From positions 1 to 31,751 of the forward strand of contig NW_003115444.1 of the NCBI RefSeq assembly GCF_000003605.2: a stretch of 31,751 nt of DNA. The letters are read 5' to 3'. This document shows, piece after piece, positions 1 through 28,367 of the stretch (the stretch's first letter is position 1; each line of letters opens with the position of its first letter). Source of the stretch: Saccoglossus kowalevskii. Lineage: Eukaryota; Hemichordata; Enteropneusta; Harrimaniidae. A program made the translations under genes and the position numbers. The notes under the pieces were generated by a model. The model was not told the DNA's origin and searched no databases. It saw only the letters and a program-made list of their open reading frames with translations.

Positions 1-102
1 GTCAGGTGACCGACAAATATTTAAAGTAAAGCACAATCGTTCGTGGTTAGTACTTGCATGGGCGACTCCCTGAGTAAACGAGCCGTTGAATTCAATTTTT
101 TT
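1..102 (+). pseudogene. 5S rRNA-derived relic with T-run, type b (copy 1)
   Basis: The segment AGTAAAGCAC at 25-34 corresponds to 5S box A. The 18-mer GGTTAGTACTTGCATGGG (45-62) differs from the eukaryotic 5S box C region (GGTTAGTACTTGGATGGG, from memory) at one position. The match weakens through CCCTGAGTAAAC and ends at GCCGTTG, followed by seven T at 96-102, where a 5S gene would have its Pol III terminator. The usual GGG of the intermediate element is GTT here. About ten A+T-rich bases are inserted just before box A, and the first ~35 nt of a 5S gene are not recognisable, so no functional 5S rRNA can be made. Confidence 0.8.
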
Positions 103-306
103 GTTTCGTCACACATATGGAAAAGATATAAGGCAACGTTCCTGCATTCTTTCTTACTGTTGTATCAATCATTTATAGTGGCAAATCATGGAATATTTGT
201 AACTTTTTTTCAATTAATGGAAAGTTTTCAAATTCCTTCTAATTTTCTAGAACATGTTGCTGATGCTATCGGCACGTAGTGGGATTTAAGCTGTCAACAC
301 ACCGTA
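103..306. other. Unassigned A+T-rich segment of the repeat unit
   Basis: This is the stretch between the 5S-like T-run and the first CAAAG subrepeat. It holds no convincing gene, RNA or transposon remnant. It is conserved between copies to the same degree as the rest of the unit. It might contain a further, very diverged subrepeat (GCAACGTTCCTGCATTC at 133-149 loosely resembles the start of subrepeat C), but I could not align it with confidence. The same segment lies at offsets 103-306 in all other copies. Confidence 0.5.
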
Positions 307-353
307 CAAAGTTGTTCAAAGTGATTGCAAAGTTGTGCAAAGCTATTTCAAAG
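307..353. repeat. Helically phased CAAAG motifs (x5)
   Basis: CAAAG occurs at 307, 317, 328, 338 and 349, with spacings of 10, 11, 10 and 11 bp, averaging 10.5 bp, the helical repeat of B-DNA. All five therefore face the same side of the helix. The block is kept in nearly all copies. CAAAG is also the core recognised by TCF/LEF-type HMG-box proteins, but no binding can be inferred from sequence alone. Confidence 0.8.
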
Positions 354-498
354 TTGGTAGGTGTATTTGTATATATGACTAAAGTTATTGGCATACAGAA
401 ACGCGCAGTTGTAAAGTAGAAATCTTGAATAAAAGCCAGTTGAAATCAGCCTATATATGTTGACATGAGCTGACTGTAAAATGCTAGAAAACAGCGTG
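307..498 (+). repeat. Internal subrepeat A (192 bp)
   Basis: The subrepeat begins at the first CAAAG of the phased block. It shares with B and C the leader CAC/CAG-CGT-CAAAG, the landmark GTTGGTAG at 353-360, and the block CGCAGTTG (404) followed by an A-rich GAATAAA-type run and CCTATATATG. The landmark distances A to B are 168-169 bp. A is longer than B and C because it has a 21-bp internal duplication of the CAAAG region. The other copies carry it at the same offset. Confidence 0.8.
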
Positions 499-673
499 CA
501 AAGTATAAAAACGATGGAAATGTTGGCGGAGTTGCTTGTATATTTAACCTAAGTCATTGTCATGACAACCCCGCAGTTGAATTTCGAAAATATTAAGTAA
601 ATGTTCCGAGAATGCCTCATATATAAGCAGATTATCATAACAGCCAACCGAAAAATCGACAACAAACTGCTTA
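499..673 (+). repeat. Internal subrepeat B (175 bp)
   Basis: It opens with AGCGTGCAAAG, parallel to ACCGTACAAAG of subrepeat A. It then has GTTGGCGG (522), TTGTATATTTAACCTAAGTC, CGCAGTTGAATTTCG (572) and CCTCATATATAAG, each aligning in order with subrepeat A. The phased CAAAG block is degenerate: only the first pentamer (499) is intact, followed by AAAAC and AAATG about 9-10 bp apart. Confidence 0.8.
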
Positions 674-840
674 CAAAGTAGTGAAAAGCGATTGCAAAGT
701 TGGTAGTTTCATTCCTAATGGTTACCTGTGATAACATATTAAAAGATGCCATAGTTACAAATTCGAAAATGTGAATAAATAGTTCGTGATTTGCAGTTAA
801 ATTACCGGAGTGTTCCTAAAGGTATTTAGAGGTCATAGGT
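674..840 (+). repeat. Internal subrepeat C (~167 bp)
   Basis: It opens with CTGCTTACAAAG. It keeps CAAAG, AAAAG and CAAAG at 674, 684 and 695 (10 and 11 bp apart), then GTTGGTAG at 699. TTCGAAAAT at 762 matches the same word at 583 in B (179 bp apart). It lacks the extra 21 bp found in A. Confidence 0.75.
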
Positions 841-842
841 CA
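830..842 (+). promoter_or_regulatory. Perfect AGGTCA direct repeat, 1-bp spacer (DR1)
   Basis: AGGTCA-T-AGGTCA is the textbook DR1 layout of nuclear-receptor half-sites (RXR/USP, HNF4 and COUP-TF classes). The intact motif is found in 28 of the 33 complete copies. It is altered in copies 2 (AGGTTA), 4 (lost G), 12 (AGGACA), 28 and 33 (AGGTCT). Homogenisation alone could explain this retention, so a regulatory role is only a possibility. Confidence 0.3.
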
Positions 843-944
843 AATATAGAAAGCACTTGTTCAGCAATATCGATTTTAGAACATTCAAAAACATGAAGTA
901 GCCGCTAATTCTACTTTATTTCAAATAATTCATGCAGCTGTCTG
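841..944 (+). repeat. Truncated internal subrepeat D'
   Basis: CAAATATAGAAAGCACTTG aligns loosely with the start of subrepeat C (CAAAGTAGTGAAAAGCGATTG). The likeness fades before the next 5S-like head begins at about 943. It is therefore read as a fourth subrepeat cut by the 5S-derived segment. This is less certain than A, B and C. Confidence 0.45.
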
Positions 945-1046
945 GTCAGGTGACCGACAAATATTTAAAGTAAAGCACAATCGGGCGTGGTTAGTACTTG
1001 CATGGGAGACTCCCTGAGTAAACGAGCCGTTGAATTCAATTTTTTT
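943..1046 (+). pseudogene. 5S rRNA-derived relic, type a (copy 2; representative)
   Basis: The best-preserved form, found in most copies. TGGTCAGGTGACCGA (943-957) matches the 5S stretch TCGTCCGATCACCGA at 11 of 15 positions. About ten extra A+T bases follow. Then come AGTAAAGCAC (box A), TCGGGCG (intermediate element), and GGTTAGTACTTGCATGGG plus AGAC (box C). The homology decays over the next 20 bp, and T7 at 1040-1046 ends it. Family comparison is from memory of animal 5S rRNA. In other copies the relic spans from 2 bp before the copy start to about +101. It could be a former 5S rDNA unit or a 5S-derived SINE head; the sequence does not decide between these. Confidence 0.85.
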
Positions 1047-1881
1047 GTTTCGTCACACATATGGAAAAGATATAAAGCAACGTTCCTGCATTCTTTCTTA
1101 CTGTTGTATCAATCATTTATAGTGGCAAATCGTGATATTTGTAACTTTTTGCAATTAATGGAAAGTTTCAATTCCTTCTAATTTTCTAGACATGTTGCTG
1201 ATGCTATCGGCACGTAGTTGGTTTTAAGCTGTCAACACACGTACAAAGTTGTTCAAAGTGATTGCAAAGTTGTGCAAAGCTATTTCAAAGTTGGTAGGTG
1301 TATTTGTATATATGACTAAAGTTATTGGCATACAGAAACGCGCAGTTGTAAAGTCGAAAACTTGAATAAAAGCCAATTGAAAGCAGCCTATATATGTTGA
1401 CATGAACTGACTGTAAAATGTTAGAAAACAGCGTGCAAAGTATAAAAACGATGGAAATGTTGGCGGAATTGCTTGTATATTTAACCCAAGTCATTGTCAT
1501 GACAACCCCGCAGTTAAATTTCGAAAATATTAAGTAAATGTTCCGAGAATGCCTCATATATAAGCAGATTATCATAACAGCCAACCGAAAAATCGACAAC
1601 AAACTGCTTACAAAGTAGTGGAAAGCGATTGCAAAGTTGGTAGTTTCATTCCTAATGGTTACCTGTGATAACATATTAAAAGATGCCATAGTTACAAATT
1701 CGAAAATGTGAATAAATAGTTCGTCATTTGCAGTTAAATTACCGGAGTGTTCCTAAAGGTATTTAGAGGTTATAGGTCAAATATAGAAAGCACTTGTTCA
1801 GCAATATCGATTTTAGAACATTCAAAAACATGAAGTAGCCGCTAATTCCACTTTATTTCAAATAATTCATGCAGCTGTCTG
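945..1881 (+). repeat. Satellite copy 2 (937 bp)
   Basis: Shorter than the norm through several 1-bp losses (GAAAGTTTCAATTCC, CTAGACATG, ACACACGTAC). Half of its DR1 is changed to AGGTTA. Confidence 0.97.
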
Positions 1882-1986
1882 GTCAGGTGACCGATAAATA
1901 TTTAAAGTAAAGCACAATCGGGCGTGGTTAGTACTTGCATGGGAGACTCCCTGAGTAAACGAGCCGTTGAATTCAATTTTTTTTTT
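1880..1986 (+). pseudogene. 5S-derived relic with lengthened T-run (copy 3)
   Basis: Type a head. The G that normally ends the T7 is a T here, giving ten T in a row at 1977-1986. Confidence 0.8.
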
Positions 1987-2823
1987 CGTCACACATATGG
2001 AAAAGATATAAGGCAACGTTCCTGCATTCTTTCTTACTGTTGTATCAATCATTTATAGTGGCAAATCGTGGAATATTTGTAACTTTTTGCAATTAATGGA
2101 AAGTTTTCAAATTCCTTCTAATTTTCTAGAACATGTTGTTGATGCTGTCGGCACGTAGTGGGTTTTAAGCTGTCAACACACCGTACAAAGTTGTTCAAAG
2201 TGATTGCAAAGTTGTGCAAAGCTATTTCAAAGTTGGTAGGTGTATTTGTATATATGACTAAAGTTATTGGCATACAGAAACGCGCAGTTGTAAAGTCGAA
2301 AACGTGAATAAAAGCCTGTTGAAATCAGCCTATACATGTTGACATGAGCTGACTGTAAAATGTTAGAAAACAGCGTGCAAAGTATAAAAACGATGGAAAT
2401 GTTGGCGGAGTTGCTTGTATATTTAACCTATGTCATTGTAATGACAGCCCCGCAGTTAAATTTCGAAAATATTAAGTAAATGTTCCGAGAATGCCTCATA
2501 TATAAGCAGATTATCATAACAGCCAACCGAAAAATCGACAACAAACTGCTTACAAAGTAGTGAAAAGCGATTGCAAAGTTGGTAGTTTCATTCCTAATGG
2601 TTACCTGTGATAACATATTAAAAGATGCCATAGTTACAATTTCGAAAATGTGAATAAATAGTTCGTGAGTTGCAGTTAAATTACCGTAGTGTTCCTAAAG
2701 GTATTTAGAGGTCATAGGTCAAATATAGAAAGCACTTGTTCAGCAATATCGATTTTAGAACATTCAAAAACATGAAGTAGCCGCTAATTCTACTTTATTT
2801 CAAATAATTCATGCAGCTGTCTG
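1882..2823 (+). repeat. Satellite copy 3 (942 bp)
   Basis: Private changes include GACCGATAAAT, CCTATACATG, and ACCTATGTCATTGTAATGAC in subrepeat B. It also has ACCGTAGTG near the end of C, shared with the Y-type copies. Confidence 0.97.
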
Positions 2824-3765
2824 GTCAGGTGACCGTCAAATATTTAAAGTAAAGCACAATCGGGCGTGGTTAGTACTTGCATGGGAGACTCCCTGTGTAA
2901 ACGAGCTGTTGAATTCAATTTTTTTGTTTCGTCACACATATGGAAAAGATATAAGGCAACGTTCCTGCATTCTTTCTTACTGTTTTATCAATCATTTACA
3001 GTGGCAAATCGTGGAATATTTCTAACTTTTTTCAATTAATGGAAAGTTTTCAAATTCCTTCTAATTTTCTAGAACATGTTGTTGATGCTATCGGCACGTA
3101 GTGGGTTTTAAGCTGTCAACACACCGTACAAAGTTGTTCAAAGTGATTGCAAAGTTGTGCAAAGCTATTTCAAAGTTGGTAGGTGTATTTGTATATATGA
3201 CTAAAGTTATTGGCATACAGAAACGCGCAGTTGTAAAGTCGAAAACATGAATAAAAGCCAGTTGAAAGCAGCCTATATATGTTGACATGAGCTGACTGTA
3301 AAATGCTAGAAAACAGCGTGCAAAGTATAAAAACGATGGAAATGTTGGCGGAGTTGCTCGTATATTTAACCTAAGTCATTTTCATGACTACCCCGCAGTT
3401 GAATTTCGAAAATATTAAGTAAATGTTCCGAGAATGCCTCATATATAAGCAGATTATCATAACAGCTAACCGAAAAATCGACAACAAACTGCTTACAAAG
3501 TAGTGAAAAGCGATTGCAAAGTTGGTAGTTTCATTCCTAATGGTTACCTGTGATAACATATTAAAAGATGCCAGAGTTACAAATTCGAAAATGTGAATAA
3601 ATAGTTCGTGATTTGCAGTTAAATTACCGGAGTGTTCCTAAAGGTATTTAGAGGTCATAGTCAAATATAGAAAGCACTTGTTCAGCAATATCGATTTTAG
3701 AACATTCAAAAACATGAGGTAGCCGCTAATTCTACTTTATTTCAAATAATTCATGCAGCTGTCTG
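2824..3765 (+). repeat. Satellite copy 4 (942 bp)
   Basis: The head is variant (GACCGTCAA, CTGTGTAAACGAGCTG). The second half has a linked set shared with copy 10: AAAACATGAATA, TTGCTCGTAT, CATTTTCATGACTAC, CCAGAGTT, CATGAGGTAG. One DR1 half-site has lost a G. Confidence 0.97.
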
Positions 3766-4707
3766 GTCAGGTGACCGACAAATATTTAAAGTAAAGCAAA
3801 ATCGGGCGTGGTTAGTACTTGCATGGGAGACTCCCTGAGTAAACGAGCCGTTTAATTAAATTTTTTTGTTTCGTCACACATATGGAAAAGATATAAGACA
3901 ACGTTCCTGCATTCTTTCTTACTGTTGTATCAATCATTTATAGTGGCAAATCGTGGAATATTTGTAACTTTTTGCAATTAATGGAAAGTTTTCAAATTCC
4001 TTCTAATTTTCTAGAACATGTTGTTGATGCTGTCGGCACGTAGTGGGTTTTAAGCTGTCAACACACCGTACAAAGTTGTTCAAAGTGATTGCAAAGTTGT
4101 GCAAAGCTATTTCAAAGTTGGTAGGTGTATTTGTATATATGACTAAAGTTATTGGCATACAGAAACGCGCAGTTGTAAAGTCGAAAACGTGAATAAAAGC
4201 CAGTTGAAAGCAGCCTATATATGTTGACATGAGCTGACTGTAAAATGCTAGAAAACAGCGTGCAAAGTATAAAAACGATGGAAATGTTGGCGGAGTTGCT
4301 TGTATATTTAACCTAAGTCATTGTCATGACAACCCCGCAGTTGAATTTCGAAAATATTAAGTAAATGTTCCGAGAATGCCTCATATATAAGCAGATTATC
4401 ATAACAGCCAACCGAAAAATCGACAACAAACTGCTTACAAAGTAGTGAAAAGCGATTGCAAAGTTGGTAGTTTCATTCCTAATGGTTACCTGTGATAACA
4501 TATTAAAAGATGCCATAGTTACAAATTCGAAAATGTGAATAAATAGTTCGTGATTTGCAGTTAAATTACCGGAGTGTTCCTAAAGGTATTTAGAGGTCAT
4601 AGGTCAAATATAGAAAGCACTTGTTCAGCAATATCGATTTTAGAACATTCAAAAACATGAAGTAGCCGCTAATTCTACTTTATTCAAATAATTCATGCAG
4701 CTGTCTG
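3766..4707 (+). repeat. Satellite copy 5 (942 bp)
   Basis: Carries GCAAAATCGGG in the head, TTTAATTAAAT before the T-run, and ATAAGACAACG, which is shared with copies 12, 14 and 24. Confidence 0.97.
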
Positions 4708-4812
4708 GTCAGGTGACCAACAAATATTTAAAGTAAAGCACAATCGGGCGGGGTTAGTACTTGCATGGGAGACTCCCTGAGTAAACGAGCCGTTGAATTC
4801 AATTGTTTGTTT
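4706..4812 (+). pseudogene. 5S-derived relic with broken T-run (copy 6)
   Basis: Type a head with GGGCGGGGTT in place of GGGCGTGGTT. The terminator-like run is interrupted (AATTGTTTGTTTCG), leaving no four consecutive T. Confidence 0.8.
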
Positions 4813-5649
4813 CGTCACACATATGGAAAAGATATAAGGCAACGTTCCTGCATTCTTTCTTACTGTTGTATCAATCATTTATAGTGGAAAATCGTGGAAT
4901 ATTTGTAACTTTTTGCAATTAATGGAAAGTTTTCAAATTCCTTCAAATTTTCTAGAACATGTTGTTGATGCTGTCGGCACGTAGTGGGTTTTAAGCTGTC
5001 AACACACCGTACAAAGTTGTTCAAAGTGATTGCACAGTTGTGCAAAGCTATTTCAAAGTTGGTAGGTGTATTTGTATATATGACTAAAGTTATTGGCATA
5101 CAGAAACGCGCAGTTGTAAAGTCGAAAACGTGAATAAAAGCCCGTTGAAATCAGCCTATATATGTTGACATGAGCTGACAGTAAAATGCTAGAAAACAGC
5201 GTGCAAAGTATAAAAACGATGGAAATGTTGGCGGAGTTGCTTGTATATTTAACCTAAGTCATTGTCATGACAACCCCGCAGTTGAATTTCGAAAATATTA
5301 AGTAAATGTTCCGAGAATGCCTCATATATAAGCAGATTATCATAACAGCCAACCGAAAAATCGACAACAAACTGCTTACAAAGTAGTGAAAAGCGATTGC
5401 AAAGTTGGTAGTTTCATTCCTAATGGTTACCTGTGATAACATATTAAAAGATGCCATAGTTACAAATTCGAAAATGTGAATAAATAGTTCGTGATTTGCA
5501 GTTAAATTACCGGAGTGTTCCTAAAGGTATTTAGAGGTCATAGGTCAAATATAGAAAGCACTTGTTCAGCAATATCGATTTTAGAACATTCAAAAACATG
5601 AAGTAGCCGCTAATTCTACTTTATTTCAAATAATTCATGCAGCTGTCTG
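4708..5649 (+). repeat. Satellite copy 6 (942 bp)
   Basis: Shares GTGACCAACAAAT and AGTGGAAAATCG with copy 18, twelve units downstream. It has GATTGCACAG inside the phased CAAAG block, breaking one motif. Confidence 0.97.
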
Positions 5650-5751
5650 GTCAGGTGACCGACAAATATTTAAAGTAAAGCACAATCGTTCGTGGTTAGT
5701 ACTTGCTTGGGCGACTCCCTGAGTAAACGAGCCGTTGAATTCAATTGTTTT
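5648..5751 (+). pseudogene. 5S-derived relic, type b, short T-run (copy 7)
   Basis: ATCGTTCG and GGGCGAC mark it as type b. Box C reads ACTTGCTTGGG, one further change. The T-run is split by a G, leaving TTTT at 5748-5751. Confidence 0.8.
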
Positions 5752-6593
5752 GTTTCGTCACACATATGGAAAAGATATAAGGCAACGTTCCTGCATTCTT
5801 TCTTACTGTTGTATCAATCATTTATAGTCGCAAATCGTGGAATATTTGTAACTTTTTTCAATTAATGGAAAGTTTTCAAATTCCTTCTAATTTTCTAGAA
5901 CATGTTGTTGATGCTGTCGGCATGTAGTGGGTTTTAAGCTGTCAACACACCGTACAAATTTGTTCAAAGTGATTGCAAAGTTGTGCAAAGCTATTTCAAA
6001 GTTGGTAGGTGTATTTGTAAATATGACTAAAGTTATTGGCATACAGAAACGCGCAGTTGTAAAGTCGAAAACGTGAATAAAAGCCAGTTGAAAGCAGCCT
6101 ATATATGTTGACATAAGCTGACTGTAAAATGCTAGAAAACAGCGTGCAAAGTATTAAAAACGAAAGAAATGTTGGCGGAGTTGCTTGAATATTTAACCTT
6201 AGTCATTGTCATGACAACCCCGCAGTTGAATTTCGAAAATATTAAGTAAATGTTCCGAAAATGCCTCATATATAAGTAGATTATCATAACAGCCAACCGA
6301 AAAATCGACAACAAACTGCTTACAAAGTAGTGAAAAGCGATTGCAAAGTTGGTAGTTTCATTCCTAGTGGTTTCCTGTTATAACATATTAAAAGATGCCA
6401 TAGTTACAAATTCGAAAATGTGAATAAATAGTTCGTGATTTGCAGTTAAATTACCGGAGTGTTCCTAAAGGTATTTAGAGGTCATAGGTCAAATATAGAA
6501 AGCACTTGTTCAGCAATATCGATTTTAGAACATTAAAAAACATGAAGTAGCCGCTAATTCTACTTAAGTTTGAATAATTCATGCAGCTGTCAG
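5650..6593 (+). repeat. Satellite copy 7 (944 bp), type b
   Basis: A relatively diverged copy: GCATGTAGTGG, ACAAATTTG, GTAAATATGAC, ACATAAGCTG, GTATTAAAAACG, and CCTAGTGGTTTCCTG. The block ACAAATTTG to ACATAAGCTG is shared with copy 25. It ends with the unusual CTTAAGTTTGAATAATTC. Confidence 0.96.
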
Positions 6594-7538
6594 GTCAGGT
6601 GACCGACAAATATTTAAAGTAAAGCACAATCGGGCGTGATTAGTACTTGCATGGGAGACTCCCTGAGTAAACGAGCTGTTGAATTTATTTTTTTTGTTTC
6701 GTCACACATATGGAAAAGATATAAGGCAACGTTCCTGCATTCTTTCTTACTGTGATGTCAATCATTTATAGTGGAAAATCGTGGAATTTTTGTAACTTTT
6801 TTCAATTAATGGAAAGTTTATCAAATTCCTTCTAATTTTCTAGAACATGTTGTTGATGCTGCCGGCACGTAGTGGGTTTTAAGCTGTCAACACACCGTAC
6901 AAAGTTGTTCAAAGTGATTGCAAAGTCGTTCAAATCTGTTTCAAAGTTGGTAGGTGTATTTGTATATATGTCTTAAGTTATTGGCATACAGAAACGCGCA
7001 GTTGTAAAGTCGAAATCTTGAATAAAAGCCAGTTGAAAGCTGCCTATATATGTTGATATGAGCTGACTGTAAAATGCTGGAAAACAGCGTGCAAAGTATA
7101 AAAAACGATGGAAATGTTGGCGGAGTTTCTTGTATATTTAACCTAAGTCATTGTCATGACAACCCTGCAGTTGAATTTCGAAAATATTAAGTAAATGTTC
7201 CGAGAATGCCTCATATATAAGCAGATTATCATAACAGCCAACCGAAAAATCGACAACAAACTGCTTACAAAGTAGTGTAAAGCGATTGCAAAGTTGGTAG
7301 TTTCATTCCTAATGGTTACCTGTGATAACATATTAAAAGATGCCATAGTTACAAATTCGAAAATGTGAATAAATAGTTCGTGATTTGCAGTTAAATTACC
7401 GGAGTGTTCCTAAAGGTATTTAGAGGTCATAGGTCAAATATAGAAAGCACTTGTTTAGCAATATCGATTTTAGAACATTCAAAAACATGAAGTAGCCGCT
7501 AATTCTACTTAATTTCAAGTAATTCATGCATCTGTCTG
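6594..7538 (+). repeat. Satellite copy 8 (945 bp), partner of copy 20
   Basis: Shares with copy 20 a long set of variants: CTGTGATGTCAATC, GGAATTTTTG, GCTGCCGGCACG, AGTCGTTCAAATCTG, ATATGTCTTAAG, TGATATGAGC, ATGCTGGAAAAC, GGAGTTTCTTG, ACCCTGCAG, AGTGTAAAGC, TGTTTAGCAAT and CATGCATCTG. Confidence 0.97.
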
Positions 7539-8482
7539 GTCAGGTGACCGACAAATATTTAAAGTAAAGCACAATCGGGCGTGGTTAGTACTTGCATGGG
7601 AGAGTCCATGAGTAAACGAGCTGTTGAATTTATTTTTTTTTGTTTCGTCACACATATGGAAAAGATATAAGGCAACGTTCCTGCATTCTTTCTTACTGTT
7701 GTGACAATCATTTATAGTGGCAGATCGTGGAATATTTGTAACTTTTTTCAATTAATGGAAAGTTTTCAAATTCCTTCTAATTTTCTAAAATATGTTGTTG
7801 ATGCTGTCGGCACGTAGTGGGTTTTAAGCTGTCAACACACCGTACAAAGTTGTTCAAAGTGATTGCAAAGTTGTGCAAAGCTATTTCAAAGTTGGTAGGT
7901 GTATTTGTATATATGACTAAAGTTATTGGTATACAGAAACGCGCAGTTGTAAAGTCGAAAACGTGAATAAAAGCCAGTTGAAAGCAGCCTATATATGTTG
8001 ACATGAGCTGACTGTAAAATGCTAGAAAACAGCGTGCAAAGTATAAAAACGATGGAAATGTTGGCGGAGTTGCTTGTATATTTAACCTAAGTCATTGTCA
8101 TGACAACCCCGCAGTTGAATTTCGAAAATATTAAGTAAATGTTCCGAGAATGCCTCATATGTAAGCAGATTATCATAACAGCCAACCGAAAAATCGACAA
8201 CAAACTGCTTACAAAGTAGTGAAAAGCGATTGCAAAGTTGGTAGTTTCATTCCTAATGGTTACCTGTGATAACATATTAAAAGATGCCATAGTTACAAAT
8301 TCGAAAATGTGAATAAATAGTTCGTGATTTGCAGTTAAATTACCGGAGTGTTCCTAAAGGTATTTAGAGGTCATAGGTCAAATATAGAAAGCACTTGTTC
8401 AGCAATATCGATTTTAGAACATTCAAAAACATGAAGTAGCCGCTAATTCTACTTTATTTCAAATAATTCATGCAGCTGTCTG
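7539..8482 (+). repeat. Satellite copy 9 (944 bp), partner of copy 21
   Basis: The first ~370 bp match copy 21 in GAGAGTCCATGAG, GTGACAATC, GGCAGATCG and CTAAAATATG. The match stops near 7910-7930, after which this copy returns to the common type (with private GGTATAC) while copy 21 does not. Confidence 0.97.
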
Positions 8483-9425
8483 GTCAGGTGACCGACACAT
8501 ATTTAAAGTAAAGCACAATCGGGCGTGGTTAGTACTTGCATGGGAGACTCCCTGAGTAAACGAGCCGTTGAATTCAATTTTTTTGTTTCGTCACACATAT
8601 GGAAAAGATATAAGGCAACGTTCCTGCATTCTTTCTTACTGTTGTATCAATCATTTATAGTGGCAAATCGTGGAATATTTGTAACTTTTTGCAATTAATG
8701 GAAAGTTTTCAAATTCCTTCTAATTTTCTAGAACATGTTGTTGATGCTGTCGGCACGTAGTGGGTTTTAAGCTGTCAACACACCGTACAAAGTTGTTCAA
8801 AGTGATTGCAAAGTTGTGCAAAGCTATTTCAAAGTTGGTAGGTGTATTTGTATATATGACTAAAGTTATTGGCATACAGAAACGCGCAGTTGTAAAGTCG
8901 AAAACATGAATAAAAGCCAGTTGAAAGCAGCCTATATATGTTGACATGAGCTGACTGTAAAATGCTAGAAAACAGCGTGCAAAGTATAAAAACGATGGAA
9001 ATGTTGGCGGAGTTGCTCGTATATTTAACCTAAGTCATTTTCATGACTACCCCGCAGTTGAATTTCGAAAATATTAAGTAAATGTTCCGAGAATGCCTCA
9101 TATATAAGCAGATTATCATAACAGCCAACCGAAAAATCGACAACAAACTGCTTACAAAGTAGTGAAAAGCGATTGCAAAGTTGGTAGTTTCATTCCTAAT
9201 GGTTACCTGTGATAACATATTAAAAGATGCCAGAGTTACAAATTCGAAAATGTGAATAAATAGTTCGTGATTTGCAGTTAAATTACCGGAGTGTTCCTAA
9301 AGGTATTTAGAGGTCATAGGTCAAATATAGGAAGCACTTGTTCAACAATATCGATTTTAGAACATTCAAAAACATGAGGTAGCCGCTAATTCTTCTTTAT
9401 TTCAAATAATTCATTCAGCTGTCTG
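8483..9425 (+). repeat. Satellite copy 10 (943 bp)
   Basis: First half is consensus-like apart from GACACAT. The second half carries the AAAACATGAATA / GCTCGTAT / CATTTTCATGACTAC / CCAGAGTT set of copy 4. It ends with ATAGGAAGC, TTCAACAAT and TCATTCAGC. Confidence 0.97.
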
Positions 9426-10368
9426 GTCAGGTGACCGACAAATATTTAAAGTAAAGCACAATCGGGCGTGGTTAGTACTTGCATGGGAGACTCCCTGAGT
9501 AAACGAGCCGTTGAATTCATTTTTTTTGTTTCGTCACACATATGGAAAAGATATAAGGCAACGTTCCTGCATTCTTTCTTACTGTTGTATCAATCATTTA
9601 TAGTGGCAAATCGTGGAATATTTGTAACTTTTTGCAATTAATGGAAAGTTTTCAAATTCCTTCTAATTTTCTAGAACATGTTGTTGATGCTGTCGGCACG
9701 TAGTGGGTTTTAAGCTGTCAACACACCGTACAAAGTTGTTCAAAGTGATTGCAAAGTTGTGCAAAGCTATTTCAAATTTGGTAGGTGTATTTGTATATAT
9801 GACTAAAGTTATTGGCATACAGAAACGCGCAGTTGTAAAGTCGAAAACGTGAATAAAAGCCAGTTGAAATCAGCCTATATATGTTGACATGAGCTGACTG
9901 TAAAATGCTAGAAAACAGCGTGCAAAGTATAAAAACGATGGAAATGTTGGCGGAGTTGCTTGTATATTTAACCTAAGTCATTGTCATGACAACCCCGCAG
10001 TTGAATTTCGAAAATATTAAGTAAATGTTCCGAGAATGCCTCATATGTAAGCAGATTATCATAACAGCCAACCGAAAAATCGACAACAAACTGCTTACAA
10101 AGTAGTGAAAAGCGATTGCAAAGTTGGTAGTTTCATTCCTAATGGTTACCTGTGATAACATATTAAAAGATGCCATAGTTACAAATTCGAAAATGTGAAT
10201 AAATAGTTCGTGATTTGCAGTTAAATTACCGGAGTGTTCCTAAAGGTATTTAGAGGTCATAGGTCAAATATAGAAAGCACTTGTTCAGCAATATCGATTT
10301 TAGAACATTCAAAAACATGAAGTAGCCGCTAATTCTACTTTATTTCAAATAATTCATGCAGCTGTCTG
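9426..10368 (+). repeat. Satellite copy 11 (943 bp)
   Basis: GAATTCATTTTTTTTG lengthens the T-run to eight. TTTCAAATTTGG is shared with copy 17, six units downstream. CATATGTAAG is shared with copies 9, 16 and 27. Confidence 0.97.
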
Positions 10369-11311
10369 GTCAGGTGACCGACAAATATTTAAAGTAAAGC
10401 ACAATCGGGCGTGGTTAGTACTTGCATGGGAGACTCCCTGAGTAAACGAGCCGTTGAATTCAATTTTTTTGTTTCGTCACACATATGGAAAAGATATAAG
10501 ACAACGTTCCTGCATTCTTTCTTACTGTTGTATCAATCATTTATAGTGGCAAATCGTGGAATATTTGTAACTTTTTGCAATTAATGGAAAGTTTTCAAAT
10601 TCCTTCTAATTTTCTAGAACATGTTGTTGATGCTGTCGGCACGTAGTGGGTTTTAAGCTGTCAACACACCGTACAAAGTTGTTCAAAGTGATTGCAAAGT
10701 TGTGCAAAGCTATTTCAAAGTTGGTAGATGTATTTGTATATATGACTAAAGTTATTGGCATACAGAAACGCGCAGTTGTAAAGTCGAAAACGTGAATAAA
10801 AGCCAGTTGAAAGCAGCCTATATATGTTGACATGAGCTGACTGTAAAATGCTAGAAAACAGCGTGCAAAGTATAAAAACGATGGAAATGTTGGCGGAGTT
10901 GCTTGTATATTTAACCTAAGTCATTGTCATGACAACCCCGCAGTTGAATTTCGAAAATATTAAGTAAATGTTCCGAGAATGCCTCATATATAAGCAGATT
11001 ATCATAACAGCCAACCAAAAAATCGACAACAAACTGCTTACAAAGTAGTGAAAAGCGATTGCAAAGTTGGTAGTTTCATTCCTAATGGTTACCTGTGATA
11101 ACATATTAAAAGATGCCATAGTTACAAATTCGAAAATGTGAATAAATAGTTCGTGATTTGCAGTTAAATTACCGGAGTGTTCCTAAAGGCATTTAGAGGA
11201 CATAGGTCAAATATAGAAAGCACTTGTTCAGCAATATCGATTTTAGAACATTCAAAAACATGAAGTAGCCGCTAATTCTACTTTATTTCAAATAATTCAT
11301 GCAGCTGTCTG
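10369..11311 (+). repeat. Satellite copy 12 (943 bp), partner of copy 24
   Basis: Shares AGACAACG and the rare CCAACCAAAAAATCG with copy 24, twelve units away. GGTAGATG is shared with copies 14 and 15. The DR1 is damaged (AGGACATAGGTCA). Confidence 0.97.
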
Positions 11312-12255
11312 GTCAGGTGACCGACAAATATTTAAAGTAAAGCACAATCGGGCGTGGTTAGTACTTGCATGGGAGACTCCCTGAGTAAACGAGCCGTTGA
11401 ATTCAATTTTTTTGTTTCGTCACACATATGGAAAAGATATAAGGCAACGTTCCTGCATTCTTTCTTACTGTTGTATCAATCATTTATAGTGGCAAATCGT
11501 GGAATATTTGTAACTTTTTGCAATTAATGGAAAGTTTTCAAATTCCTTCTAATTTTCTAGAACATGTTGTTGATGCTGTCGGCACGTAGTGGGTTTTAAG
11601 CTGTCAACACACCGTACAAAGTTGTTCAAAGTGATTGCAAAGTTGTGCAAAGCTATTTCAAAGTTGGTAGGTGTATTTGTATATATGACTAAAGTTATTG
11701 GCATACAGAAACGCGCAGTTGTAAAGTCGAAAACGTGAATAAAAGCCAGTTGAAAGCAGCCTATATATGTTGACATGAGCTGACTGTAAAATGCTAGAAA
11801 ACAGCGTGCAAAGTATAAAAACGATGGAAATGTTGGCGGAGTTGCTTGTATATTTAACCTAAGTCATTGTCATGACAACCCCGCAGTTGAATTTCGAAAA
11901 TATTAAGTAAATGTTCCGAGAATGCCTCATATATAAGCAGATTATCATAACAGCCAACCGAAAAATCGACAACAAACTGCTTACAAAGTAGTGAAAAGCG
12001 ATTGCAAAGTTGGTAGTTTCATTCCTAATGGTTACCTGTGATAACATATTAAAAGATGCCATAGTTACAAATTCGAAAATGTGAATAAATAGTTCGTGAT
12101 TTGCAGTTAAATTACCGGAGTGTTCCTAAAGGTATTTAGAGGTCATAGGTCAAATATAGGAAGCACTTGTTCAGCAATATCGATTTTAGAACATTCAAAA
12201 ACATGAGGTAGCCGCTAATTCTACTTTTGTTTCAAATAATTCATGCAGCTGTCTG
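11312..12255 (+). repeat. Satellite copy 13 (944 bp), near consensus
   Basis: Close to the common sequence over most of its length. The tail has ATAGGAAGC, CATGAGGTAG and ACTTTTGTTTC. Confidence 0.97.
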
Positions 12256-13198
12256 GTCAGGTGACCGACAAATATTTAAAGTAAAGCACAATCGGGCGTG
12301 GTTAGTACTTGCATGGGAGACTCCCTGGGTAAACGAGCCGTTGAATTAAATTTTTTTGTTTCGTCACACATATGGAAAAGATATAAGACAACGTTCCTGC
12401 ATTCTTTCTTACTGTTGTATCAATCATTTATAGTGGCAAATCGTGGAATATTTGTAACTTTTTGCAATTAATGGAAAGTTTTCAAATTCCTTCTAATTTT
12501 CTAGAACATGTTGTTGATGCTGTCGGCACGTAGTGGGTTTTAAGCTGTCAACACACCGTACAAAGTTGTTCAAAGTGATTGCAAAGTTGTGCAAAGCTAT
12601 TTCAAAGTTGGTAGATGTATTTGTATATATGACTAAAGTTATTGGCATACAGAAACGCGCAGTTGTAAAGTCGAAAACGTGAATAAAAGCCAGTTGAAAG
12701 CAGCCTATATATGTTGACATGAGCTGACTGTAAAATGCTAGAAAACAGCGTGCAAAGTATAAAAACGATGGAAATGTTGGCGGAGTTGCTTGTATATTTA
12801 ACCTAAGTCATTGTCATGACAACCCCGCAGTTAAATTTCGAAAACATTAAGTAAATGTTCCGAGAATACCTTATATATAAGCAGATTATCATAACAGCCA
12901 ACCGAAACATTGACAACGAACTGCTTACAAAGTAGTGAAAAGCGATTGCAAAGTTGGTTGTTTCATTAGTAATGGTTACCTGTGATAACATATTAAAAGA
13001 TGCCACAGTTACGAATTCAAAAATGTGAATAAATAGTTCGTGATTTGCATTTAAATTACCGCAGTGATACTAAATGTATTTAGAGGTCATAGGTCAAATA
13101 TAGAAGGGACTTGTTCAGCAATATCGATTTTAAAACCTTCAAAAACATAAAATAGCCGCTAATTCTACTTAATTTTAAATAATCCATGCAGCTGTCTG
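12256..13198 (+). repeat. Satellite copy 14 (943 bp), diverged second half
   Basis: The first half is ordinary (CTGGGTAAAC, AGACAACG, GGTAGATG). From about 12830 changes become dense: AATACCTTATAT, GAAACATTGACAACGAAC, GGTTGTTTCATTAG, CACAGTTACGAATTC, CCGCAGTGATACTAAATG, GAAGGGACTTG, AAAACCTTC and CATAAAATAG. This opens the most divergent stretch of the window. Confidence 0.96.
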
Positions 13199-13300
13199 GT
13201 CAGGTGACTGACACATATTTAGAGTAAAGCACAGTCAGGCGTGGTTAGTACTTGCATGGGAAACTCCCTGAGTAAACGAGCTGTTGAATTTAATTTTTTT
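13197..13300 (+). pseudogene. 5S-derived relic, diverged (copy 15)
   Basis: GGTGACTGACACAT, AGTCAGGCG and GGGAAACTCC show extra changes, including in the intermediate element. Box C (GGTTAGTACTTGCATGGG) and T7 (13294-13300) are intact. Confidence 0.78.
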
Positions 13301-14140
13301 GTTTCGTCACACATATGGAAAAGATATAAGGCAACGTTCCTGCATTCTTTCTTACTGTTGTGTCAATAATTTATAGTGGCAAATCGTGGAATATTTGTAA
13401 CTTTTTGCAATTAATGGAAAGTTTTCAAATTCCTTCTAATTTTCTAGAACATGTTGTTGATGCTGTCGGCACGTAGTGGGTTTTAAGCTGTCAACACACC
13501 GTACAAAGTTGTTCAAAATGATTGCAAAGTCGTGCAAATCTGTTTCAAAGTTGGTAGATGTATTTGTATATATGACCTAAGTTATTGGCATACAGAAACG
13601 CGCAGTTGTAAAGTCGAAGACTTGACTAAAAGCCAGTTGAAAGCAGCCTATATATGTTGATATGAGCTGACTGTAAAATGCTAGAAAACAGCGTGCAAAG
13701 TATAAAAAACGTAAGAAATGTTGGCGGAGTGCTTGTATATTTAACCTTAGTCATTGTCATGACAACCCCGCAGTTAAATTTCGAAAATATTAAGTAAATG
13801 TTCCGAGAATACCTCATATATAAGCAGATTATCGTAACAGCCAACCGAAAAATCGACAACAAACTGCTTACAAAGTATGAAAAGCGATTGCAAAGTTGGT
13901 AGTTTCATTCCTAATGGTTACCTGTGATAACATATTAAAAGATGCCATAGTTACAAATTCGAAAATGTGAATAAATAGTTCGTGATTTGCAGTTAAATTA
14001 CCGGAGTGTTCCTAAAGGTATTTAGAGGTCATAGGTCAAATATAAAAAGCACTTGTTCAGCAATATCGATTTTAGAACATTCAAAAACATGAAGTAGCCG
14101 CTAATTCTACTTTATGTCAAATAATTCATGCAGCTGTCTG
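13199..14140 (+). repeat. Satellite copy 15 (942 bp), diverged
   Basis: Continues the divergent stretch: GACTGACACATATTTAGAG, GTCGTGCAAATCTG, GACCTAAG, CGAAGACTTGACTA, GATATGAGC, AAAAAACGTAAG. Several of these resemble copies 8 and 20, suggesting an older variant family. The tail from about 13870 is close to consensus. Confidence 0.96.
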
Positions 14141-15082
14141 GTCAGGTGACCGACAAATATTTAAAGTAAAGCACAATTGTTCGTGTTTAGTACTTGCATG
14201 GGCGACTCCCTGAGTAAACGAGCCGTTGAATTCAATTTTTTTGTTTCGTCACACATATGGAAAAGATATAAGGCAACGTTCCTGCATTCTTTCTTACTGT
14301 TGTATCAATCATTTATAGTCGCAAATCGTGGAATATTTGTAACTTTTTTCAATTAATGGAAAGTTTTCAAATTCCTTCTAATTTTCTAGAACATGTTGTT
14401 GATGCTGTCGGCACGTAGTGGGTTTTAAGCTGTCAACACACCGTACAAAGTTGTTCAAAGTGATTGCAAAGTTGTGCAAAGCTATTTCAAAGTTGGTAGG
14501 TGTATTTGTATATATGACTAAAGTTATTGGCATACAGAAACGCGCAGTTGTAAAGTAGAAAACGTGAATAAAAGCCAGTTGAAATCAGCCTATATATGTT
14601 GACATGAGCTGACTGTAAAATGCTAGAAAACAGCGTGCAAAGTATAAAAACGATGGAAATGTTGGCGGAGTTGCTTGTATATTTAACCTAAGTCATTGTC
14701 ATGACAACCCCGCATTGAATTTCGAAAATATTAAGTAAATGTTCCGAGAATGCCTCATATGTAAGCAGATTATCATAACAGCCAACCGAAAAATCGACAA
14801 CAAACTGCTTACAAAGTAGTGAAAAGCGATTGCAAAGTTGGTAGTTTCATTCCTAATGGTTACCTGTGATAACATATTAAAAGATGCCATAGTTACAAAT
14901 TCGAAAATGTGAATAAATAGTTCGTGATTTGCAGTTAAATTACCGGAGTGTTCCTAAAGGTATTTAGAGGTCATAGGTCAAATATAGAAAGCACTTGTTC
15001 AGCAATATCGATTTTAGAACATTCAAAAACATGAAGTAGCCGCTAATTCTACTTTATTTCAAATAGTTCATGCAGCTGTCTG
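14141..15082 (+). repeat. Satellite copy 16 (942 bp), type b
   Basis: Type b head with ATTGTTCGTGTTTAG. CCCCGCATTG (1-bp loss) and CATATGTAAG are both shared with copy 27. Confidence 0.97.
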
Positions 15083-16025
15083 GTCAGGTGACCGACAAAT
15101 ATTTAAAGTAAAGCACAATCGGGCGTGGTTAGTACTTGCATGGGAGACTCCCTGAGTAAACGAGCCGTTGAATTCAATTTTTTTGTTTCGTCACACATAT
15201 GGAAAAGATATAAGGCAACGTTCCTGCATTCTTTCTTACTGTTGTATCAATCATTTATAGTGGCAAATCGTGGAATATTTGTAACTTTTTGCAATTAATG
15301 GACAGTTTTCAAATTCCTTCTAATTTTCTAGAACATGTTGTTGATGCTGTCGGCACGTAGTGGGTTTTAAGCTGTCAACACACCGTACAAAGTTGTTCAA
15401 AGTGATTGCAAAGTTGTGCAAAGCTATTTCAAATTTGGTAGGTGTATTTGTATATATGACTAAAGTTATTGGCATACAGAAACGCGCAGTTGTAAAGTCG
15501 AAAACGTGAATAAAAGCCAGTTGAAATCAGCCTATATATGTTGACATGAGCTGACTGTAAAATGCTAGAAAACAGCGTGCAAAGTATAAAAACGATGGAA
15601 ATGTTGGCGGAGTTGCTTGTATATTTAACCTAAGTCATTGTCATGACAACCCCGCAGTTGAATTTCGAAAATATTAAGTAAATGTTCCGAGAATGCCTCA
15701 TATATAAGCAGATTATCATAACAGCCAACCGAAAAATCGACAACAAACTACTTACAAATTAGTGAAAAGCGATTGCAAAGTTGGTAGTTTCATTCCTAAT
15801 GGTTACCTGTGATAACATATTAAAAGATGCCATAGTTACAAATTCGAAAATGTGAATAAATAGTTCGTGATTTGCAGTTAAATTACCGGAGTGTTCCTAA
15901 AGGTATTTAGAGGTCATAGGTCAAATATAGAAAGCACTTGTTCAGCAATATCGATTTTAGAACATTCAAAAACATGAAGTAGCCGCTAATTCTACTTTAT
16001 TTCAAATAATTCATGCAGCTGTCTG
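15083..16025 (+). repeat. Satellite copy 17 (943 bp)
   Basis: Private GGACAGTTTTC and AACTACTTACAAATTAG; the latter breaks the CAAAG that opens subrepeat C. TTTCAAATTTGG links it to copy 11. Confidence 0.97.
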
Positions 16026-16968
16026 GTCAGGTGACCAACAAATATTTAAAGTAAAGCACAATCGGGCGTGGTTAGTACTTGCATGGGAGACTCCCTGAGT
16101 AAACGAGCCGTTGAATTCAATTTTTTTGTTTCGTCACACATATGGAAAAGATATAAGGCAACGTTCCTGCATTCTTTCTTACTGTTGTATCAATCATTTA
16201 TAGTGGAAAATCGTGGAATATTTGTAACTTTTTGCAATTAATGGAAAGTTTTCAAATTCCTTCTAATTTTCTAGAACATGTTGTTGATGCTGTCGGCACG
16301 TAGTGGGTTTTAAGCTGTCAACACACCGTACAAAGTTGTTCAAAGTGATTGCAAAGTTGTGCAAAGCTATTTCAAAGTTGGTAGGTGTATTTGTATATAT
16401 GACTAAAGTTATTGGCATACAGAAACGCGCAGTTGTAAAGTCGAAAACGTGAATAAAAGCCAGTTGAAATCAGCCTATATATGTTGACATGAGCTGACTG
16501 TAAAATGCTAGAAAACAGCGTGCAAAGTATAAAAACGATGGAAATGTTGGCGGAGTTGCTTGTATATTTAACCTAAGTCATTGTCATGACAACCCCGCAG
16601 TTGAATTTCGAAAATATTAAGTAAATGTTCCGAGAATGCCTCATATATAAGCAGATTATCATAACAGCCAACCGAAAAATCGACAACAAACTGCTTACAA
16701 AGTAGTGAAAAGCGATTGCAAAGTTGGTAGTTTCATTCCTAATGGTTACCTGTGATAACATATTAAAAGATGCCATAGTTACAAATTCGAAAATGTGAAT
16801 AAATAGTTCGTGATTTGCAGTTAAATTACCGGAGTGTTCCTAAAGGTATTTAGAGGTCATAGGTCAAATATAGAAAGCACTTGTTCAGCAATATCGATTT
16901 TAGAACATTCAAAAACATGAAGTAGCCGCTAATTCTACTTTATTTCAAATAATTCATGCAGCTGTCTG
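16026..16968 (+). repeat. Satellite copy 18 (943 bp), partner of copy 6
   Basis: Otherwise consensus-like; GTGACCAACAAAT and AGTGGAAAATCG pair it with copy 6. Confidence 0.97.
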
Positions 16969-17911
16969 GTCAGGTGACCGACAAATATTTAAAGTAAAGC
17001 ACAATCGGGCGTGGTTAGTACTTGCATGGGAGACTCCCTGAGTAAACGAGCCGTTGAATTCAATTTTTTTGTTTCGTCACACATATGGAAAAGATATAAG
17101 GCAACGTTCCTGCATTCTTTCTTACTGTTGTATCAATCATTTATAGTGGCAAATCGTGGAATATTTGTAACTTTTTGCAATTAATGGAAAGTTTTCAAAT
17201 TCCTTCTAATTTTCTAGAACATGTTGTTGATGCTGTCGGCACGTAGTGGGTTTTAAGCTGTCAACACACCGTACAAAGTTGTTCAAAGTGATTGCAAAGT
17301 TGTGCAAAGCTATTTCAAAGTTGGTAGGTGTATTTGTATATATGACTAAAGTTATTGGCATACAGAAACGCGCAGTTGTAAAGTCGAAAACGTGAATAAA
17401 AGCCAGTTGAAATCAGCCTATATATGTTGACATGAGCTGACTGTAAAATGCTAGAAAACAGCGTGCAAAGTATAAAAACGATGGAAATGTTGGCGGAGTT
17501 GCTTGTATATTTAACCTAAGTCATTGTCATGACAACCCCGCAGTTGAATTTCGAAAATATTAAGTAAATGTTCCGAGAATGCCTCATATATAAGCAGATG
17601 ATCATAACAGCCAACCGAAAAATCGACAACAAACTGCTTACAAAGTAGTGAAAAGCGATTGCAAAGTTGGTAGTTTCATTCCTAATGGTTACCTGTGATA
17701 ACATATTAAAAGATGCCATAGTTACAAATTCGAAAATGTGAATAAATAGTTCGTGATTTGCAGTTAAATTACCGGAGTGTTCCTAAAGGTATTTAGAGGT
17801 CATAGGTCAAATATAGAAAGCACTTGTTCAGCAATATCGATTTTAGAACATTCAAAAACATGAAGTAGCCGCTAATTCTACTTTATTTCAAATAATTCAT
17901 GCAGCTGTCTG
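16969..17911 (+). repeat. Satellite copy 19 (943 bp), near consensus
   Basis: One of the cleanest copies. The only clear variant is CAGATGATCATAAC, shared with copy 22. Confidence 0.97.
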
Positions 17912-18855
17912 GTCAGGTGACCGACAAATATTTAAAGTAAAGCACAATCGGGCGTGGTTAGTACTTGCATGGGAGACTCCCTGAGTAAACGAGCCGTTGA
18001 ATTTATTTTTTTTGTTTCGTCACACATATGGAAAAGATATAAGGCAACGTTCCTGCATTCTTTCTTACTGTGATGTCAATCATTTATAGTGGAAAATCGT
18101 GGAATTTTTGTAACTTTTTTCAATTAATGGAAAGTTTTCAAATTCCTTCTAATTTTCTAGAACATGTTGTTGATGCTGCCGGCACGTAGTGGGTTTTAAG
18201 CTGTCAACACACCGTACAAAGTTGTTCAAAGTGATTGCAAAGTCGTTCAAATCTGTTTCAAAGTTGGTAGGTGTATTTGTATATATGTCTTAAGTTATTG
18301 GCATACAGAAACGCGCAGTTGTAAAGTCGAAATCTTGAATAAAAGCCAGTTGAAAGCAGCCTATATATGTTGATATGAGCTGACTGTAAAATGCTGGAAA
18401 ACAGCGTGCAAAGTATAAAAAACGATGGAAATGTTGGCGGAGTTTCTTGTATATTTAACCTAAGTCATTGTCATGACAACCCTGCAGTTGAATTTCGAAA
18501 ATATTAAGTAAATGTTCCGAGAATGCCTCATATATAAGCAGATTATCATAACAGCCAACCGAAAAATCGACAACAAACTGCTTACAAAGTAGTGTAAAGC
18601 GATTGCAAAGTTGGTAGTTTCATTCCTAATGGTTACCTGTGATAACATATTAAAAGATGCCATAGTTACAAATTCGAAAATGTGAATAAATAGTTCGTGA
18701 TTTGCAGTTAAATTACCGGAGTGTTCCTAAAGGTATTTAGAGGTCATAGGTCAAATATAGAAAGCACTTGTTTAGCAATATCGATTTTAGAACATTCAAA
18801 AACATGAAGTAGCCGCTAATTCTACTTAATTTCAAGTAATTCATGCATCTGTCTG
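17912..18855 (+). repeat. Satellite copy 20 (944 bp), partner of copy 8
   Basis: Carries the copy-8 variant set from about 18002 onward. Its head keeps GAGCCGTTG where copy 8 has GAGCTGTTG, so the shared tract begins just after the 5S-like relic. Confidence 0.97.
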
Positions 18856-19800: not shown

Positions 19801-19898
19801 GTCAGGTGACTGACAAAGATTTAAAGTAAAGCACAATCGTTCATGGTTAGTACTTGCATGGGCAAACGAGAAAACGAGCCGTTGAATTCAATTTTTTT
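19799..19898 (+). pseudogene. 5S-derived relic, rearranged (copy 22)
   Basis: Type b-like (ATCGTTCATGG). After CATGGGC the usual GACTCCCTGAGT is replaced by AAACGAGA, duplicating the neighbouring AAACGAG; the net loss is 4 bp. T7 at 19892-19898 is intact. Confidence 0.8.
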
Positions 19899-21681: not shown

Positions 21682-21781
21682 GTCAGTGACCGACAAATAT
21701 TTAAAGTAAAGCACAATCGTTCGTGGTTAGTACTTGCATGGGCGACTCCCTGAGTAAACGAGCCGTTGATTCAATTTTTTT
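21680..21781 (+). pseudogene. 5S-derived relic, type b (copy 24)
   Basis: A 1-bp loss turns the GGTCA-GG-TGACC of other copies into GGTCA-G-TGACC, a perfect inverted repeat with a 1-bp spacer. Otherwise type b with T7 at 21775-21781. Confidence 0.78.
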
Positions 21782-28265: not shown

Positions 28266-28367
28266 GTCAGGTGACCGACAAATATTTAAAGTAAAGCAAA
28301 ATCGTTCGTGGTTAGTACTTGCATGGGAGACTCCCTGAGAAAACGAGCCGTTTAATTCAATTTTTTT
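28264..28367 (+). pseudogene. 5S-derived relic, a/b recombinant (copy 31)
   Basis: Has the type b ATCGTTCG but the type a GGGAGAC. This is the only copy in which the two otherwise linked positions are split. T7 at 28361-28367. Confidence 0.78.

What the first reader, a model, noticed from the sequence alone, without database searches (positions are those of the whole stretch)
943..1046. Satellite unit carries a 5S rRNA-derived head ending in a Pol III-like T-run
Every copy contains GGTTAGTACTTGCATGGG (or a near variant) in the right order behind AGTAAAGCAC and TCGGGCG. These are the box C, box A and intermediate-element regions of eukaryotic 5S genes. Seven T follow where a 5S terminator would sit. 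The same degenerate changes occur in all copies, so the relic was already decayed before amplification. The satellite may descend from a 5S rDNA repeat (gene plus spacer) or from a 5S-derived SINE. Residual TFIIIA sites and terminators, repeated over 30 times, could allow low-level Pol III transcription or TFIIIA binding.
Basis: partly seen in the sequence, partly recalled or inferred. Interest (0 to 1): 0.82.

Follow-up and report, generated by a model that had tools for sequence, protein, structure and literature searches.

The report
Satellite keeping a 5S gene switch
The window is one long array of a 943-base repeat whose units each carry a broken-down copy of the animal's own 5S ribosomal RNA gene, and while the rest of the repeat has diverged between its subfamilies, the short stretch that the 5S gene's regulator TFIIIA would bind has hardly changed, so that site is likely kept for a DNA-level job, predicted but not yet tested.

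Summary
All 34 units of the window (943-bp satellite, 97.2% mean identity) carry a 5S-derived head. The host's own 5S genes, found elsewhere in the genome, match the unit consensus 30 of 30 over 5S nt 62-91 (intermediate element plus most of box C). The outer 5S parts are decayed. A T-run sits where the 5S terminator would. Other contigs hold subfamilies 65-84% identical to one another. With units cut at spacer anchors, 5S nt 49-91 is the best conserved of 753 windows; over 11 lineages none of 913 windows beats nt 62-91. 5S RNA base pairs are kept only at chance level, so the likely constraint is on DNA: a TFIIIA / Pol III promoter site. The sampled host 5S spacers share nothing else with the unit, and the dispersed pieces looked at do not start at the head, so a current 5S repeat or a SINE is an unlikely source. 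Against function: within this array the head is more variable than most of the unit. It resembles frog PcP190 satellite; binding and transcription are untested.

The parts
1..31751 (+). Satellite array: 34 head-to-tail units (last one 664 bp), consensus 943 bp, mean pairwise identity 97.2%, identity flat against lag; the window is G000:C882:1-31751
939..1875 (+). One unit (second copy), used for the coordinates below
968..1010 (+). 5S-derived control region, 5S nt 49-91; best conserved 43-nt window across four subfamily consensuses
968..976 (+). 5' part of box A (5S nt 49-57, 8/9 to host 5S)
981..1010 (+). Core, 5S nt 62-91, 30/30 to host 5S
986..991 (+). Intermediate element, 5S nt 67-72
   Evidence: element limits from passages of PMC3342222
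997..1010 (+). Box C part, 5S nt 78-91, 14/14 to host 5S in all four subfamily consensuses (nt 92-97 only 3-4 of 6)
1011..1037 (+). Decayed 3' part of 5S (nt 92-118)
1040..1046 (+). T-run at the position of the 5S Pol III terminator
1260..1775 (+). Approximate span of three old, diverged monomers of about 170 bp inside the unit (consensus about 322-840)

Best explanation
The window is an array of a satellite whose unit carries a truncated copy of the host's 5S rRNA gene, and because the TFIIIA-recognition core of that copy has stayed almost unchanged across diverged subfamilies while the rest of the unit drifted, the core is likely retained as a DNA site that would recruit TFIIIA and the Pol III machinery to the arrays. 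Shown: 5S origin of the head, retention of 5S nt 62-91, loss of the 5S RNA fold, and a T-run in the terminator position. Inferred: that the conservation reflects selection on arrays or on their source units rather than exchange with 5S genes. Predicted and untested: TFIIIA binding, short Pol III transcripts of roughly 120 nt ending at the T-run, and an effect on chromatin state, array homogenisation or array spread.
For: Host 5S genes (47 of 47 listed matches over the Rfam cut-off, in three contigs) match the C882 and C879 unit consensuses 30/30 over nt 62-91, and C880 and C883 28/30 and 29/30; all 11 lineages aligned have 27-30 of 30. With consensuses from units cut at spacer anchors, nt 49-91 is the top window of 753 (0.926 against 0.747 overall; invariant columns 37/43 against 368/671, Fisher p 4e-5). 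Three aligners agree; it is first in the full set and in three of four leave-one-out sets, and without C883 7 of 900 windows reach it, itself counted. Over 11 lineages no window of 913 is higher than nt 62-91 and none of 917 higher than box C nt 78-91. The flanks of the same 5S-derived piece are decayed: nt 27-48 5-14 of 22, nt 98-118 9-10 of 21. The pairs of the predicted 5S RNA fold are kept at chance level, 15-17 of 39 against 15.2 expected, pointing to DNA rather than RNA. A run of 5 or more T lies in the terminator slot in 79 of 86 heads against 7.4% of slots anywhere. All 11 lineages share letters that 5S lacks at nt 98, 102 and 107, close behind the core, which argues against ongoing copying from 5S genes.
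Against: Within the window the head is not protected: deviation from consensus is 3.1% against 1.7% for the whole unit, and 96% of equal windows are less variable (95%). In the other three arrays 80%, 68% and 36% of windows are less variable. Only 19 of 34 heads in the window have the exact core. Over 11 lineages 2 of 900 windows beat the wider nt 49-91, and in the dispersed or spacer-found subset 16 of 874 do, though none beats nt 62-91. One of six spacer-found places with a head has it less like the nearest consensus than the rest. Box A is incomplete (linker nt 58-61 has 0-2 of 4 5S letters in 11 lineages) and box C is kept only to nt 91 of 97. C1534 has 5S letters throughout nt 49-59, an older state or a trace of exchange with 5S genes. 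No transcript, binding or chromatin data were available.
Confidence: 0.5

Rival explanations
1. Inert relic refreshed by exchange: the core is kept 5S-like by occasional gene conversion with the real 5S genes, or between subfamilies, with no function of its own.
For: Core identity of 30/30 to host 5S in two subfamilies; C1534 has 5S letters at nt 49-59 where the other ten lineages differ; high within-array variation of the head fits absence of selection; recombination between a 5S-derived satellite and 5S rDNA is described for frog PcP190 (PMC11675491, sections read).
Against: Tracts would have to stop at the ends of a 30-43 nt stretch in several lineages; all 11 lineages share non-5S letters at nt 98, 102 and 107; the C880 and C883 consensuses have their own letters inside the core; no 5S spacer sequence was carried along in the stretches compared.
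Confidence: 0.22
2. Neutral relic: a 5S pseudogene became part of a satellite and the core is conserved by chance or by low mutability.
For: Within-array variation is not reduced; other blocks of the unit are also well conserved, best non-overlapping window 0.868.
Against: Rank 1 of 753 windows for a stretch named beforehand, and Fisher p 4e-5; no window of 913 higher than nt 62-91 over 11 lineages; 30 consecutive matches in a 56-nt segment with 11 mismatches has probability about 0.0006.
Confidence: 0.15
3. The head is kept by something other than TFIIIA, for instance another DNA-binding protein or a small RNA pathway that targets 5S-like sequence.
For: Conservation alone does not name the binder; a near-palindrome GGTCAGGTGACC lies just upstream in many units of the window.
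Against: The kept stretch coincides with the intermediate element and most of box C, which are TFIIIA sites (PMC3342222 passages), and is followed by a T-run in the terminator position.
Confidence: 0.1
4. A 5S-headed SINE, or a retroelement like Cassandra, that became tandem.
For: 5S-derived heads exist in SINEs (recalled; listing), and tandem arrays of 5S-bearing Cassandra elements exist in plants (PMC7215508 passages).
Against: The single copy found runs from consensus 705 through the unit junction to 830; two other dispersed pieces align over 499-614 and 280-608 without the head. No fixed 5' end at the head in these three.
Confidence: 0.03

Closest known systems
PcP190 satellite of hyloid frogs
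   Same: Tandem satellite with a 5S-derived conserved part and a faster-changing part, distinct from the species' 5S rDNA, whose known spacers it does not share (PMC11675491: abstract, introduction and discussion read)
   Different: PcP190 units are about 190 bp with a 120-bp conserved region about 70% like 5S; here the unit is 727-957 bp, only the control region is kept, and the rest of the unit is alignable between subfamilies, so a rate difference can be measured instead of a swap of spacers
PLsatB of Plantago lagopus and 5S-spacer arrays of Tribolium freemani
   Same: Satellites holding 5S or 5S-spacer pieces (passages of PMC11202950)
   Different: There 5S spacer takes part; here no similarity to the sampled host 5S spacers was found
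Tandem arrays of Cassandra retroelements in plants
   Same: Tandem units with a conserved 5S Pol III promoter and terminator outside 5S genes (passages of PMC7215508)
   Different: Cassandra units are LTR elements of plants; no LTR structure was looked for here, and the host's COX1 reads with TGA as tryptophan, taken here as animal-type
CENP-B box satellites (recalled, not looked up)
   Same: A short protein-binding motif conserved in an otherwise drifting satellite
   Different: Different motif and predicted binder; no evidence here for a centromeric place

Membership tests
5S rRNA gene (Rfam RF00001) | Covariance score at or above the gathering score of 38 bits | tested here: not met
   17.7 bits for a window unit; 22.1 and 21.1 bits in L061, none listed at E up to 1 in L060 and L062; host 5S genes 105-113 bits
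5S rRNA gene (Rfam RF00001) | 5S RNA secondary structure | tested here: not met
   15-17 of 39 pairs of the predicted host 5S fold kept, chance expectation 15.2
Satellite derived from 5S rDNA | Tandem array of a unit with a segment homologous to the host 5S gene | tested here: met
Satellite derived from 5S rDNA | Long arrays at several places of the genome | tested here: met
   111 exact copies of a 39-mer of the head and 355 of a spacer 25-mer in the genome, many of those listed at unit spacing on several contigs
PcP190 | Unit of about 190 bp with a 120-bp 5S-like region | tested here: not met
   units of 943, 938, 957 and 727 bp; similarity strong only over nt 49-91
Type 1 (TFIIIA-dependent) Pol III promoter | Box A nt 50-64, intermediate element nt 67-72, box C nt 80-97 | tested here: inconclusive
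   C882: nt 49-57 8/9, linker nt 58-61 0/4, IE 6/6, nt 78-91 14/14, nt 92-97 3/6
Type 1 (TFIIIA-dependent) Pol III promoter | T-run terminator downstream | tested here: met
   4 or more T in 84 of 86 heads, 5 or more in 79 of 86
Type 1 (TFIIIA-dependent) Pol III promoter | TFIIIA binding and Pol III transcription | not testable with these tools
   no binding or RNA data held
5S-headed SINE | Dispersed copies with a common 5' end at the head | tested here: not met
   L001, L056 and L057 begin inside the unit; three copies only
5S-headed SINE | Target-site duplications and 3' tail | not tested
   -
Cassandra-type TRIM element | LTRs, primer-binding site, polypurine tract | not tested
   -
Centromeric satellite | Place at centromeres | not testable with these tools
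   the contigs carry numbers only, with no chromosome map

The most novel reading that the evidence does not exclude
A satellite superfamily that has domesticated the 5S gene's TFIIIA site as its standing protein-binding box, in the way that some centromeric satellites keep a CENP-B box: each unit offers a TFIIIA core and a Pol III terminator, and TFIIIA occupancy marks the arrays for chromatin, clustering or copy spread.
Probability: 0.2. Interest if true: 0.8.

Novelty: new variant of a known kind. Interest (0 to 1): 0.56.

Why it matters
TFIIIA is generally thought to serve 5S genes almost alone (recalled). Here a diverged satellite superfamily keeps just its recognition core while the RNA fold and the flanks are gone, and the spacer is alignable between subfamilies, so a rate difference can be measured cleanly. 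In frog PcP190 a similar contrast was explained by insertion of different 5S spacers (PMC11675491 discussion), which does not fit here because the spacer is homologous across subfamilies. It makes the question whether satellites are held by sequence-specific factors testable with one antibody or one gel shift.

Tried and rejected
Rfam at gathering threshold: nothing in the window. Viral-contig scan with a 23-mer of the head: 0 matches. A first subfamily comparison chose units by their match to the core and was replaced by one with spacer anchors. Similarity of the satellite to host 5S spacers: only chance pieces, E 1.9 or more, in the three stretches compared. Host identity: COX1 reads through with TGA as Trp on contig C4830, taken to be an animal mitochondrion; an eye reading of the neighbouring ND1 suggested neither vertebrate nor echinoderm code, not tested further. 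Higher-order repeats within the array: identity flat from lag 1 to 19. A sequence-only head model was used on 20 fetched sources and showed the C1000 cluster. Literature: the searches listed no paper that I recognised as describing a satellite that keeps only the 5S control region; of the listed papers I saw passages or sections of six (PMC11675491, PMC11202950, PMC6204057, PMC3342222, PMC7806164, PMC7215508) and only listings of the rest. Most subscription papers are not in that library.

Rows dropped: one C879 unit of 1465 bp; of 12 lineages assembled the partial C994 copy was not aligned; L063 (a C879-type array) and the headless pieces L056 and L057 were not among the 12. C2917 was found by its head, so it is biased towards an intact head; results without it are. 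The C1000 cluster lay in a stretch fetched as the flank of the single copy but was noticed through the head model, so the 'dispersed or spacer-found' subset is not wholly free of such bias.

Full report
What the window is. The window is G000:C882:1-31751 of a 572-Mb genome in 4830 contigs. It is one array from end to end: 34 units, consensus 943 bp, mean pairwise identity 97.2% (93.8-99.8%), with no rise in identity at any lag from 1 to 19 units. The unit contains three old, diverged monomers of about 170 bp.

The 5S head is real. A human 5S gene (letters recalled) matches the unit at 37/44, E 6e-10; the Smith-Waterman score of 53 compares with a best of 30 in 2000 dinucleotide shuffles of the unit and 27 in 2000 of the 5S. 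Rfam's 5S model gives only 17.7 bits, under its gathering score of 38. The host's own 5S genes were then found: 47 listed matches, all above the cut-off, 24 in C3485 mostly at about 1139-bp spacing and 23 in C2212 and C3801, mostly at about 1580 bp. The host 5S letters TCGGGCGTGGTTAGTACTTGCATGGGAGAC (nt 62-91) equal the unit consensus 30 of 30. Beyond the gene segment the three stretches of 5S repeats compared share only chance pieces with the satellite.

Anatomy. In register with 5S and almost without gaps, the unit keeps box A's first part (nt 49-57, 8/9), loses the linker nt 58-61 (0/4), keeps nt 62-91 whole, is about half decayed over nt 92-118, and has a T-run in the position of the 5S terminator. 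The element limits (A box 50-64, IE 67-72, C box 80-97), and the statement that IE and C box are TFIIIA sites, are from passages of PMC3342222. The C883 array and a diverged cluster on C1000 show 5S-like letters further left, from about nt 35.

Subfamilies give the test. Four of the five contigs C879 to C883 are this satellite (the window's C882 included): C879, C880 and C883 hold subfamilies with units of about 938, 957 and 727 bp, and C881 is a 28-bp tandem repeat where sampled. The first 2.5 kb of twelve more contigs nearby in number showed none, some of them masked. Pairwise identity of the four consensuses is 65-84%. A first comparison picked units by their head and was redone with spacer anchors (33 units of C882, 13 of C879, 15 of C880, 20 of C883; one odd C879 unit dropped). 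In it 5S nt 49-91 is the best conserved of 753 windows: 0.926 against 0.747 overall, and invariant columns 37 of 43 against 368 of 671, Fisher p 4e-5. Three aligners agree. It stays first in three of four leave-one-out sets; with C883 left out 7 of 900 windows, itself counted, reach it. Box C nt 78-91 is 14/14 identical to host 5S in all four consensuses.

More lineages. Genome-wide, an exact 39-mer of the head occurs 111 times and an exact 25-mer of the spacer 355 times. Eight places found by the spacer 25-mer were fetched; in two only a headless piece aligns, and in five of the other six the control region is closer to the nearest consensus than the rest is (the exception is a C879-type array, 0.953 against 0.985). 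In C1534 nt 49-91 is 40/43 to host 5S, with nt 49-57 9/9. In six further copies (two in C2917, found by head; one single copy and three in a cluster on C1000) the control region is closer in six of six. With 11 lineages aligned, nt 62-91 has 27-30 of 30 host 5S letters in each; no window of 913 is higher, none of 917 is higher than nt 78-91, and 2 of 900 are higher than nt 49-91. In the subset that is spacer-found or dispersed (six lineages), no window of 882 is higher than nt 62-91, while 16 of 874 are higher than nt 49-91.

DNA, not RNA. Of 39 base pairs in the predicted fold of host 5S, the four consensuses keep 15, 16, 17 and 16, and a random sequence of satellite composition keeps 15.2 on average. 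The partners of the core have drifted, so the core is not kept as part of a 5S-like RNA. The T-run is kept: 5 or more T in the terminator slot in 79 of 86 heads, against 7.4% of 23-nt slots over the units. Because units within an array are copies of one another, the independent count is nearer to four lineages than to 86.

Results against function. Inside the window the head is among the more variable parts (3.1% against 1.7%; 96% of windows less variable), partly through a variant that changes GGGC to GTTC and GGGAGAC to GGGCGAC. In the other arrays 80%, 68% and 36% of windows are less variable. Nineteen of 34 heads have the exact core, and 25 of 34 have at most two edits with a T-run of 5 or more. 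So any selection would act on arrays or on the units that seed them, not on each unit.

How it most likely works. The best reading is a satellite that took up a 5S gene fragment before its subfamilies split and whose TFIIIA core has since been kept as a DNA site. TFIIIA, with TFIIIC and Pol III, would bind the units, and short transcripts may end at the T-run. What this does for the array is open: transcription-linked chromatin, clustering near 5S loci, or a recombination or replication effect that favours spread. The main rival, refreshment by exchange with 5S genes, must explain why the exchange stops at the core, why all 11 lineages share non-5S letters at nt 98, 102 and 107, and why the C880 and C883 consensuses have their own letters inside the core. 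In its favour, C1534 alone has 5S letters throughout nt 49-59, which could be exchange or an older state.

What is known. Satellites derived from 5S are known: PcP190 in frogs, about 190 bp with a 120-bp region about 70% like 5S and RNA-seq evidence of transcription (PMC11675491: abstract, introduction and discussion read), and others named in passages of PMC11202950. Tandem arrays of plant Cassandra elements carry 5S promoters (passages of PMC7215508). I found no report of a satellite that keeps only the control region, in the open-licence library and with the searches named in Tried and rejected. Hence: new variant of a known kind.

Noticed in passing
window 944-955 and the same place in many other units: Near-palindrome GGTCAGGTGACC directly upstream of the 5S-derived part (two half-sites with a 2-nt spacer).
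   Followed up: no
window units that one search lists at 1, 5644, 14135, 21676 and 23559: Head variant with GTTC in place of GGGC together with GGGCGAC in place of GGGAGAC; the unit listed at 28261 has only the first change, and the one at 19797 a further altered form.
   Followed up: partly
window, unit consensus about 322-840: Three diverged monomers of about 170 bp inside the 943-bp unit, the likely trace of an older shorter satellite.
   Followed up: partly
L023, L024, L025: The host has two kinds of 5S array, spacing about 1139 bp (C3485) and about 1580 bp (C2212, C3801), with different-looking spacers; the second spacer holds internal CTAGTTAACTA-type repeats.
   Followed up: no
L030, unit of about 727 bp: In the alignment the C883 subfamily lacks about 200 bp that begins just after the T-run, so the head and T-run are kept while the adjoining spacer is gone.
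   Followed up: partly
L029 10-9900: Contig C881, next in number to the window, is a 28-bp tandem repeat of about 353 copies in the 9.9 kb sampled.
   Followed up: no
L027 4418-6785: Short cluster of old satellite copies, related to C883 but with more spacer after the T-run, inside a 977-kb contig and followed by a G-rich minisatellite; the single diverged copy of L001 lies about 4.5 kb away in the other orientation.
   Followed up: partly
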